Source: Ancylobacter koreensis (GTDB lineage Bacteria > Pseudomonadota > Alphaproteobacteria > Rhizobiales > Xanthobacteraceae). Taken from it: a DNA stretch of 64,000 nucleotides. Positions 43,993 to 46,491 of this stretch are shown piece after piece (within the stretch, counting starts at the first letter, position 1; each line of letters opens with the position of its first letter). The stretch covers positions 868,001 through 932,000 of the forward strand of contig NZ_JALKCG010000001.1 of assembly GCF_023016525.1 (NCBI RefSeq), given 5' to 3'. A program made the translations under genes and the position numbers. The notes under the pieces are model-generated. The model saw nothing but the letters and a program-made list of their open reading frames with translations, was not told the DNA's origin and searched no databases.

Positions 43993-45294
43993 TCAGCCGT
44001 CCAGCGTCTCTGTGCCGGTTATCTCGATGCCGAAGCCGGCGACGCCGACATAGGTGCGTGCCCGCGAGGCGAGCAGGCGAATCGAGGAAATGCCGAGATC
44101 GCGCAATATCTGCGCGCCGAGGCCGACCTCGCGCCAGTTCTCGTCGCGCAGCTTTGCGGTCTCGATCTTCTCTTCGCCGACGGCGGAGACCGGTACGCCG
44201 GTGGTGCCGTCGCGCAGATAGACCAGCACGCCGCGCCCTTCCGCCTTGATGCGCTCCAGCGAGGCGCGGATCGCCTTGCCGCCGGTAAAGACATCGCCGA
44301 TCGGATCGGCCCGGTGCAGGCGCACCAGTACATCGCGCCCGTCGCCGATCTTGCCGTGGACGAGCGCGATATGGTTCACCGGCTCGAAGGGCGTGACATA
44401 GGAGATGCCGTGCATCTCGCCGACCACGGTCGGGGCGGCGAATTCGGCGGCGCGCGTCACCAGCTTCTCGCGGAGCTGGCGGTAGGCGATGAGGTCGGCG
44501 ACCGAAATGCGCGTCAGCTTGTGGGTGGCGGCGAAGTCGGCGACCTTCGGGCCGCGCATCACCGTGCCGTCGTCATTGACCAGCTCGCAAATGACGCCGA
44601 CCGGCTCCAGATTGGCGAGCCGGCACAGGTCGACCGCCGCTTCCGTATGGCCCGAGCGCATGAGCACGCCGCCCTCGCGGGCGATGAGTGGGAAGATGTG
44701 GCCGGGACGCACGAAGTCGACCGCCCCGGCATTGGGGTTGGCGAGCCCGCGCACCGTGGCGGTGCGGTCCTCGGCCGAGATGCCGGTGGTGGTGCCGTGC
44801 CGGTAGTCCACCGAGATGGTGAAGGCGGTGGCGTGCGGGGCGTCGTTGTCCGTCACCATCGGGTTGAGCCGCAGGCGCTTGGCGTGTTCGGCGGTCAGCG
44901 GCGTGCAGACGATGCCGGAGGTGTGGCGCACGATGAAGGCCAGCTTCTCGGGCGTGGCGAACTGGGCGGCGACGATGAGGTCGCCCTCGTTCTCGCGGTC
45001 GTCATCGTCGGTGACGACCAGCATGTCGCCGCGGGCGAAGGCTTCGATCGCCGCTTCGACGCGGCCCTGCAGATTGTCGGTCATGAATGCCACCTCGGCG
45101 CTTTCCAGGCCCAGGAAGTCATTGGGCGTGACCGCCCCGCCGGTGGCGGAGGCGATGCGCGCGCCGGCTTCCCGGGAGATCCAGGCTTGCTCGTCCTTGC
45201 ACAATGCGGTGATGCTGGCAGGCGACAGGCCGACGGCGCGCGCGAAGGCGCTGCGGGTCGTGCCGGTCATGGTGAGCCAGTCGGCGAGTTTCAT
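43993..45294 (-). CDS. ribBX: RibB-RibX riboflavin protein with N-terminal Cro-type HTH
   Basis: A 433-residue three-part protein. Residues 1-70 are a Cro/YdaS-like helix-turn-helix ([22 protein letters not shown], then [22 protein letters not shown]). Residues about 75-280 are 3,4-dihydroxy-2-butanone-4-phosphate synthase, with [11 protein letters not shown] and [12 protein letters not shown]; this is the RibB step from ribulose 5-phosphate. The C-terminal domain resembles GTP cyclohydrolase II but lacks the zinc Cys cluster ([19 protein letters not shown] where RibA has SECLTGD and RCDC), so it is the degenerate RibX type. An internal ATG at 45084 with GAGGTGG upstream could give a form without the HTH. 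No FMN riboswitch is visible; a 17-bp palindrome lies 53 bases upstream. Confidence 0.92.
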
Positions 45295-45346
45295 GACGGA
45301 ACGATAAAACCGCCCGCCTTCGGTGGCAATGAAAATCGCGACGATA

Positions 45347-45363
45347 TTTCAGTAATACTGAAA
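45347..45363. promoter_or_regulatory. Palindromic operator upstream of ribBX
   Basis: TTTCAGT-AAT-ACTGAAA is a perfect palindrome with 7-bp arms, 53 bases upstream of the ribBX start and just after the aroC stop. The arms resemble binding sites of Cro/XRE-type repressors. The ribBX N-terminal HTH is a natural candidate for binding it. Confidence 0.6.
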
Positions 45364-45378
45364 GTTGTGGCGATGCGC

Positions 45379-46491
45379 TCAGCGCGCGAACGGCCACATC
45401 GGCGGCGTGCCGACCTGTCCGCGATGGCGCAGGAAATGGTCCGCCAGCACGCAGGCCACCATGGCCTCGCCCACCGGCACGGCGCGAATGCCCACGCACG
45501 GGTCGTGCCGGCCCTTCGTCACCACGTCGGCGTCCTCGCCATGGCGCGTCACCGTGTGGCGCGGGGTGAGGATGGAGGAGGTCGGCTTCACCGCGAAGCG
45601 CGCCACTACCGGCTGGCCGGTGGAGATGCCGCCGAGTATGCCGCCGGCATGATTGGCGAGGAAGACCGGGCGGCCGTCATTGCCCATGCGCATCTCGTCG
45701 GCATTGCTCTCGCCGGTGAGCGCGGCGCTGGCGAAGCCCTCGCCGATCTCCACGCCCTTCACCGCGTTGATGCTCATCAGCGCGCCTGCAAGGTCAGCGT
45801 CGAGCTTGCCGCAGATCGGCGCGCCGAGGCCCGGCGGCACGCCCTCGGCCACCACCTCGATCACCGCACCGACCGAGGAGCCCGCCTTGCGGATGCCGTC
45901 GAGATAGTCCGCCATGCGCGCGGCGGCCTGCGCGTCGGGGCAGAAGAACGGGTTGCGGCCGATTTCGGCGTCGTCCCAGTTGGCCCGGTCGATGCTGATC
46001 TCGCCCATCTGCACCAGCGCGCCGGTGACGGTGACGCCGGGCAGCACCTTCGCCGCGATGGCGCCGGCGGCAACGCGCACCGCCGTCTCGCGCGCCGAGG
46101 AGCGACCGCCGCCGCGATGGTCGCGCAGGCCGTATTTCACGTCATAGGCGTAGTCGGCATGGCCGGGGCGGTAGCTCTCCGAAATCGCCGAATAATCCTT
46201 GGAGCGCTGGTCGACATTCTCGATCAGGAAGCCGATCGGCGTTCCCGTCGAAACCAGCGTGCCGTCCTCTTCCGCGAGCGTGCCGGAGAGGATCTTTACC
46301 TCGTCCGGCTCGCGGCGCTGGGTGGTGAAGCGCGACTGGCCGGGGCGGCGGCGGTCGAGCGCGCCCTGCACTTCCTCCAGCCGGAAGCGGATGCCGGGGG
46401 GGCAGCCGTCGATGACGCCGCCAATGGCCGGGCCGTGGCTCTCGCCGAAGGTGGTGACGCGGAAGAGCTGGCCGAAAGTGTTGAAGGACAT
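45379..46491 (-). CDS. aroC: Chorismate synthase
   Basis: A 370-residue FMN-dependent enzyme that makes chorismate at the end of the shikimate pathway. Signatures are [36 protein letters not shown], then [14 protein letters not shown] and [16 protein letters not shown] near residues 290-305. Full length. It is upstream of ribBX in the same direction, with the palindrome in the 84-base gap. Confidence 0.98.

What the first reader, a model, noticed from the sequence alone, without database searches (positions are those of the whole stretch)
43993..45294. RibB-RibX protein carrying its own N-terminal Cro-type helix-turn-helix
Seen: a continuous frame with an HTH of about 70 residues, an intact RibB domain and a cyclohydrolase-like C-terminus that lacks the zinc cysteines. 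Known: RibBX hybrids (RibB plus a degenerate RibA-like domain) are described in Proteobacteria. The added DNA-binding head suggests a metabolic enzyme that regulates its own gene, in place of an FMN riboswitch, which I do not see. An internal ATG at 45084 with GAGGTGG upstream could yield a second product without the HTH.
Basis: partly seen in the sequence, partly recalled or inferred. Interest (0 to 1): 0.7.

Follow-up and report, generated by a model that had tools for sequence, protein, structure and literature searches.

The report
Riboflavin enzyme carrying its own repressor
A vitamin B2-making enzyme of Ancylobacter-type bacteria carries a DNA-binding head whose matching DNA site sits on its own gene's promoter and, in some relatives, also on a riboflavin-transporter gene, so the enzyme very probably controls its own production, though this has not been tested at the bench.

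Summary
In detail: window 45294..43993 (-) is one 433-aa frame with a Cro-type HTH, an intact RibB domain and a zinc-less RibX domain. The HTH is real protein: fused in 30 of 30 genomes of its genus that were examined and in 74 of 397 sampled genomes of the order, with pN/pS 0.23 in frame.

It very probably reads its own promoter. A 7-N3-7 palindrome, TTTCAGT-N3-ACTGAAA, lies upstream in 88 of 89 fusions with this HTH type and in 0 of 15 unfused ribBX genes; the half-site becomes TATTAGC or ATTACAT where the recognition helix differs. In family f41 (Stappiaceae-type) the site also precedes the FMN riboswitch of a ribN-like transporter gene: 9 of 9, against 0 of 9 in unfused genomes of other families. 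A second, imperfect site overlaps the -35, and the ATG lies 6 nt after the -10, which predicts leaderless autorepression.

"In place of an FMN riboswitch" is not supported. An internal SD-led start is conserved in part of the families. Related HTH heads sit on CoaBC, MeaB and other enzymes. My searches found no paper on this; nothing was tested experimentally; the effector is unknown.

The parts
43993..45294 (-). HTH-RibBX gene, 433 aa, start ATG at 45294
45109..45294 (-). N-terminal Cro-type HTH, residues 1-62; recognition helix region [11 protein letters not shown]
44482..45057 (-). RibB domain (DHBP synthase), residues 80-271, DRENEGDL and GHTEAAVDL motifs present
44011..44454 (-). RibX domain, residues 281-428: GTP cyclohydrolase II-like without the zinc cysteines
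45347..45363 (-). Operator O1, perfect palindrome TTTCAGT-ATT-ACTGAAA, -69..-53, centred at -61 from the ATG
45318..45335 (-). Second, imperfect operator-like element O2 (TTTTCATTGCCACCGAAG) that contains the -35 hexamer; judged by eye and by conserved columns
45324..45329 (-). -35 hexamer TTGCCA
45301..45306 (-). -10 hexamer TATCGT, 6 nt before the ATG: predicts a leaderless transcript
45082..45096 (-). Internal SD-like GAGGTGG and ATG (45084) at the start of the RibB part; possible HTH-less product

Best explanation
The gene makes a RibBX enzyme that is also its own transcription factor. Dimers bind through the N-terminal HTH to the gene's promoter, at O1 (-69..-53) and at O2 over the -35, and repress transcription; the -10 lies just before the ATG, so the full-length protein is translated from a leaderless mRNA. 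In family f41 (Stappiaceae-type) relatives the same protein also represses a ribN-like riboflavin transporter gene in trans, upstream of its FMN riboswitch. An internal SD-led start probably gives some HTH-less RibBX, so that enzyme and repressor need not be made in equal amounts. Shown by sequence: fusion, purifying selection, O1, helix-operator co-variation, the second target site. Inferred: dimer binding, O2, repression, leaderless start, dual products. Unknown: the signal; a ligand of RibB or RibX is the likeliest, protein concentration alone the simplest.
For: HTH fused in 30 of 30 genus genomes and 74 of 397 sampled genomes of the order, 73 read and one (G314) by frame length only. HTH pN/pS 0.234 in frame, about 1.9 in the two shifted frames. 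TTTCAGT-N3-ACTGAAA with up to 3 of 14 mismatches: 88 of 89 type A (30 of 30 in the genus, 12 exact), 0 of 12 type B, 0 of 7 type C, 1 of 2 type D; shuffled upstreams 0.4%; unfused ribBX 0 of 15. TATTAGC: 10 of 12 B, 0 of 98 others. ATTACAT: 6 of 7 C (HTH-CoaBC), 0 of 103 others. Named genomes: of 196 relatives the 80 kept all have RibB and the operator, 26 exact; 27 of the 80 share a contig length with the first set. Exact site genome-wide: 29 sites in 26 of 57 type A genomes: 24 at the own gene, 4 at ribN riboswitches, 1 elsewhere; 14 of 14 exact sites in the 61-genome sample at the own gene. ribN leaders: 9 of 9 fused, 0 of 9 unfused. One promoter in 2 kb, 0.1 expected, with its -35 inside O2.
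Against: No experiment. The genomes are related: on a tree of 52 RibBX proteins, of 4 independent pairs that differ in fusion on well-supported branches the operator goes the same way in 3.7 on average and never the other way, p 0.125 (there operator absence in unfused rows was taken). The pattern was counted on the data in which it was found, and type A was the default class. One of 89 type A (L077), 2 of 12 B and 1 of 7 C upstreams miss the site, each with 4 mismatches. Type C palindromes are weak: only 4 of 7 have 6 or more of 7 pairs, a level that 13-18% of shuffles reach. ATTTAGT of type D also fits 15 of 89 type A upstreams. Some Cro-type HTH domains in enzymes (HppE, HEPD are fold matches) are not known to me to bind DNA. 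The ribN link is seen in one family only, and the unfused ribN controls come from other families. Ancylobacter itself shows only its own site and a 2-mismatch site near a LysR-type gene.
Confidence: 0.8

Rival explanations
1. The palindrome is the operator of another, separate regulator, and the fused HTH is a structural or oligomerisation relic.
For: HTH domains in some enzymes such as HppE are not known to me as DNA readers (one search lists HppE among fold matches). No binding data.
Against: Half-site changes with the recognition helix of the fused HTH across three types; site absent where the HTH is absent (0 of 15); site nearly unique in the genome and placed at the fused gene.
Confidence: 0.08
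2. The HTH-RibBX activates rather than represses: O1 is centred near -61, a classic activator position.
For: O1 starts at -70 to -67 in 61 of 89 type A genes.
Against: O2 covers the -35; in 11 of 12 type B and 7 of 7 type C genes the best site starts at -26 to -24, over the -10 region; in four of the nine f41 ribN genes it lies within 30 nt of the riboswitch start or over it.
Confidence: 0.12
3. Only the product from the internal ATG at 45084 is made, and the upstream frame is an old remnant.
For: Strong SD before 45084; the -10 leaves no room for an SD before 45294.
Against: Purifying selection on the HTH codons, intact HTH over several families; public records carry the long form (lengths and names).
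Confidence: 0.03

Closest known systems
RibBX hybrids of Proteobacteria (RibB plus degenerate RibA domain)
   Same: Same RibB and zinc-less RibX domains. [quoted passage not shown]
   Different: Those passages mention no HTH; 15 unfused relatives compared here have none and lack the operator.
RbkR of Archaea (HTH fused to riboflavin kinase)
   Same: A flavin-pathway enzyme with its own N-terminal DNA-binding domain; a table passage in PMC8305020 lists HVO_0326 rbkR as 'bifunctional as gene regulator and enzyme' and MJ0056 as 'enzyme only; lacks an N-terminal HTH domain'.
   Different: Different enzyme and step; archaeal; no common origin tested here.
BirA, NadR, PutA (bifunctional enzyme-regulators; recalled)
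   Same: Cofactor or metabolic enzyme that is also a repressor.
   Different: Other enzymes and operators; effector known there, unknown here. Not compared here.
HigA, P22 c2, CylR2 and CapH-type HTH domains
   Same: Fold of the head.
   Different: Stand-alone or other partner domains; sequence identity 16-30% in those rows.

Membership tests
RibBX hybrid | intact RibB domain with catalytic motifs | tested here: met
   Pfam 6e-84; R100, E101, E103, D105 and H216, T217, E218 invariant in 53 fused proteins; that these are catalytic motifs is recalled
RibBX hybrid | RibA-like domain without zinc cysteines | tested here: met
   alignment to 4i14 and 2bz0
RibBX hybrid | DHBP synthase activity, no GTP cyclohydrolase activity | not testable with these tools
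   needs assay
Cro/CI-type HTH | helical Cro-type fold with helix 2-turn-helix 3 | tested here: met
Bifunctional enzyme-regulator (BirA/RbkR-like) | enzyme and DNA-binding domain in one chain | tested here: met
Bifunctional enzyme-regulator (BirA/RbkR-like) | cognate operator at the own gene or pathway genes | tested here: met
   by sequence only:
Bifunctional enzyme-regulator (BirA/RbkR-like) | binding shown and controlled by a pathway ligand | not testable with these tools
   needs EMSA and ligands
FMN riboswitch-controlled gene | RF00050 in the leader | tested here: not met

The most novel reading that the evidence does not exclude
Alphaproteobacteria repeatedly put one small HTH module (MKLxxWL...AVTPNDF) on the front of metabolic enzymes, so that the enzyme becomes its own repressor with a private palindrome on its promoter: RibBX, CoaBC, MeaB, glutamine synthetase, aspartate/ornithine carbamoyltransferase and 2-oxoglutarate dehydrogenase E1 were seen. 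RibBX and CoaBC show matching operators here; MeaB shows TTAACCA-N3-TGGTTAA (one copy with a mismatch) just before the ATG in three genomes; the others showed no convincing palindrome in the few upstreams read.
Probability: 0.45. Interest if true: 0.85.

Novelty: new variant of a known kind. Interest (0 to 1): 0.74.

Why it matters
How alphaproteobacteria without a riboswitch on ribBX control this step is, to my knowledge, open. This gives a concrete regulator, operator and second target, testable with one protein and one DNA duplex. In some relatives an enzyme-borne repressor and an FMN riboswitch seem to meet on one transporter gene. The natural variation of helix and operator is a ready specificity set. 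If the wider HTH-enzyme pattern holds, it is a simple recurrent way to make an enzyme limit its own synthesis.

Tried and rejected
FMN riboswitch replacement: fused genomes do carry fewer FMN riboswitches (15 of 74 against 134 of 323, Fisher p 5e-4, not corrected for kinship), but unfused ribBX genes rarely have one nearby either, so the simple swap is rejected. A wider regulon in Ancylobacter: at up to 2 mismatches the own genome holds the gene's own site and one site near a LysR-type gene. A third exact site in G363 (C8:567212; L137) was not explained. Riboswitches before ribH-like genes carry no operator: 0 of 10 in HTH-enzyme genomes (five type A, one type B, four HTH-CoaBC genomes) and 0 of 9 in unfused genomes. 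Single origin of the fusion: a tree of 52 RibBX proteins needs 5 changes of the fused state, gains or losses; not resolved. Operators for other HTH-enzymes: best palindromes of the carbamoyltransferase (L281) and 2-oxoglutarate dehydrogenase (L288) fusions have 5 of 7 pairs, of four glutamine synthetase-like ones 6, 5, 5 and 5, no better than chance (13-18% of shuffles reach 6). The full-length AlphaFold2 model is poor (mean pLDDT 68, much of RibB below 50) and was not used further. Literature: the listings of searches showed no title or abstract start about an HTH-RibB or HTH-CoaBC fusion; the library holds open-licence papers only. Of PMC4418817, PMC8305020, PMC3518464, PMC10012899 and PMC8536739 I saw passages, of the rest listings.

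Rows dropped: G314 (frame near a contig end) was not fetched; L044 gave no motif and was dropped from the unfused control (15 of 16 used); 2 of 20 control riboswitch loci (L238, L241) could not be classed; type D (2 genes) was counted apart; the alignment for the full-length model used 53 rows out of a list of 82 proteins.

Full report
What is there. The frame 45294..43993 (-) encodes 433 residues: a Cro-type HTH (residues 1-62), a linker, RibB (80-271) and RibX (281-428). Acidic and histidine residues of the RibB motifs are invariant in 53 fused proteins; RibX lacks the zinc cysteines. Neighbours are chorismate synthase upstream (45379..46491, -) and a DUF1194 protein downstream.

Is the HTH real. 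All 30 genomes of the genus in the 61-genome sample carry it from residue 1, as do G035, G030, G055 and G058. Over 61 HTH codons the median pN/pS is 0.234 in 435 pairs, against 0.144 in RibB and about 1.9 in the two shifted frames. In 397 genomes of the order, 110 have an HTH match; 74 have it on a RibB frame (73 read, G314 by frame length) and 7 on CoaBC. A protein search restricted to the HTH found 175 proteins; of the 120 listed, 119 carry RibB and RibA-like domains and one carries chorismate synthase. Names seen: Ancylobacter, Xanthobacter, Azorhizobium, Labrys, Bosea, Stappia, Roseibium/Labrenzia, Pannonibacter, Pseudovibrio, Pinisolibacter, Prosthecomicrobium, Aestuariivirga.

The operator. 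O1 (45363..45347) is a perfect 7-N3-7 palindrome. Three HTH types give three half-sites of the same geometry: type A (mostly helix SPAxxTALC; the default class) TTTCAGT; type B (family f23, Aestuariivirga-like, helix GR[VI]SQ) TATTAGC; type C (family f32, HTH-CoaBC) ATTACAT. With up to 3 of 14 mismatches within 120 bases upstream: TTTCAGT 88 of 89 A, 0 of 12 B, 0 of 7 C, 1 of 2 D; TATTAGC 10 of 12 B and none of A, C, D; ATTACAT 6 of 7 C and none of A, B, D. Base-shuffled upstreams reach 0.4, 0.5 and 1.0%; unfused ribBX genes 0 of 15 in 350 bases, best 4 mismatches. Type D (2 genes, helix SAGAITQFC) fits ATTTAGT in 2 of 2, but so do 15 of 89 A. As plain palindromes, 84 of 89 A, 11 of 12 B, 4 of 7 C and 1 of 2 D have 6 or more of 7 pairs, against 13-18% of dinucleotide shuffles. 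Of 196 relatives in named genomes the best 80 were kept: 80 of 80 fused to RibB and with the TTTCAGT operator, 26 exact; 27 of the 80 have a contig length already in the first set.

Genome-wide, the exact site occurs in 14 of 61 relatives, once each and always at the own gene. In 57 type A genomes of the order it occurs in 26: 29 sites, 24 at the own gene, 4 just upstream of an FMN riboswitch, 1 other. Type B: 7 of 12 genomes, one site each at the own gene. Type C with up to 1 mismatch: 5 of 7 genomes, 4 at the own gene, 1 elsewhere; the reversed control pattern hit 2 of 7.

A second target. I read 19 FMN riboswitch loci of HTH-enzyme genomes. Nine precede a ribN-like gene (EamA by Pfam for the eight tested; the ninth by similarity), all in family f41 (Pannonibacter, Pseudovibrio, Roseibium/Labrenzia and congeners); all nine carry the operator with 0 or 1 mismatch, starting 26 to 91 bases before the riboswitch or, once, overlapping its 5' end. 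Ten precede lumazine synthase genes and none carries it. In 20 riboswitch loci of unfused genomes, 9 ribN-like and 9 ribH-like leaders carry none (best ribN 4 mismatches); 2 were unclassed. That alphaproteobacterial ribN genes carry FMN riboswitches and that RibN imports riboflavin is in passages of PMC4418817.

Promoter and starts. The scan finds one promoter in 2 kb, 0.1 expected: TTGCCA at 45329, spacer 17, TATCGT ending at 45301, 6 nt before the ATG. So the mRNA should be leaderless, with the -35 inside O2. In 11 of 12 B and 7 of 7 C genes the best site starts at -26 to -24, over the -10 region. Position argues for repression; O1 at -61 leaves room for activation. At the internal Met the SD-like pairing has a genus median of -9.9 kcal/mol against -2.5 elsewhere; 20 of 30 genus members reach -9.7 or better, the other 10 do not. 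Over all families, the best start codon in the linker reaches -8 in 42 of 102 genes, against 5.7% of equal windows elsewhere; but 0 of 19 in f41 (12 of 19 reach -7.5), 2 of 12 in f23 and 1 of 7 in f42. This could be a kept ancestral start or a used second start.

Evolution. On a tree of 52 RibBX proteins the fused state changes 5 times; in 4 independent supported pairs the operator follows the fusion in 3.7 on average and never goes against it, too few for significance.

Wider pattern. In 385 genomes of the class, 57 have an HTH match. Besides RibBX in f94, Pfam shows the head on MeaB (f60), glutamine synthetase, a carbamoyltransferase, 2-oxoglutarate dehydrogenase E1 and a nitrate-reductase-delta (TorD-like) protein. 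Three f60 genes (MeaB by Pfam in two, by eye in the third) have TTAACCA-N3-TGGTTAA with 7, 7 and 6 of 7 pairs, ending 2-3 nt before the ATG; the enzyme fusions other than these showed nothing above chance in the upstreams read.

Judgement. Enzyme-borne regulators are a known kind (RbkR; BirA recalled), and this is a new variant with strong comparative support for its operator. A passage of PMC10012899 reports that the X domain of another RibBX tunes RibB by an unknown mechanism, which makes RibX a natural ligand sensor; that is inference. Direction, ligand and the second product remain to be tested.

Noticed in passing
L116, L118, L121, L123-L126 (family f32): The same kind of HTH is fused to CoaBC, with an ATTACAT-N3-ATGTAAT site before the ATG in 6 of 7.
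   Followed up: partly
L265/L278 (one genome), L279, L280 (family f60): HTH fused to the MeaB GTPase, with a TTAACCA-N3-TGGTTAA palindrome just before the ATG.
   Followed up: partly
L281 (G620), L288 (G751), L266, L273, L285, L259: HTH heads on a carbamoyltransferase, 2-oxoglutarate dehydrogenase E1, glutamine synthetase and a TorD-like protein; no convincing palindrome where the upstream was scored.
   Followed up: partly
L133-L136, L146, L148, L149, L151, L152: A transcription-factor operator directly upstream of, or touching, an FMN riboswitch on ribN-like genes: two flavin-linked controls on one leader.
   Followed up: yes
L137 (G363 C8:567212): A third exact operator copy in a Pseudovibrio-like genome, not near a flavin gene that I recognised.
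   Followed up: no
P0013: A 349-aa database protein with the HTH matched and a chorismate synthase domain; aroC is the upstream neighbour, so this may be a frameshift fusion.
   Followed up: no
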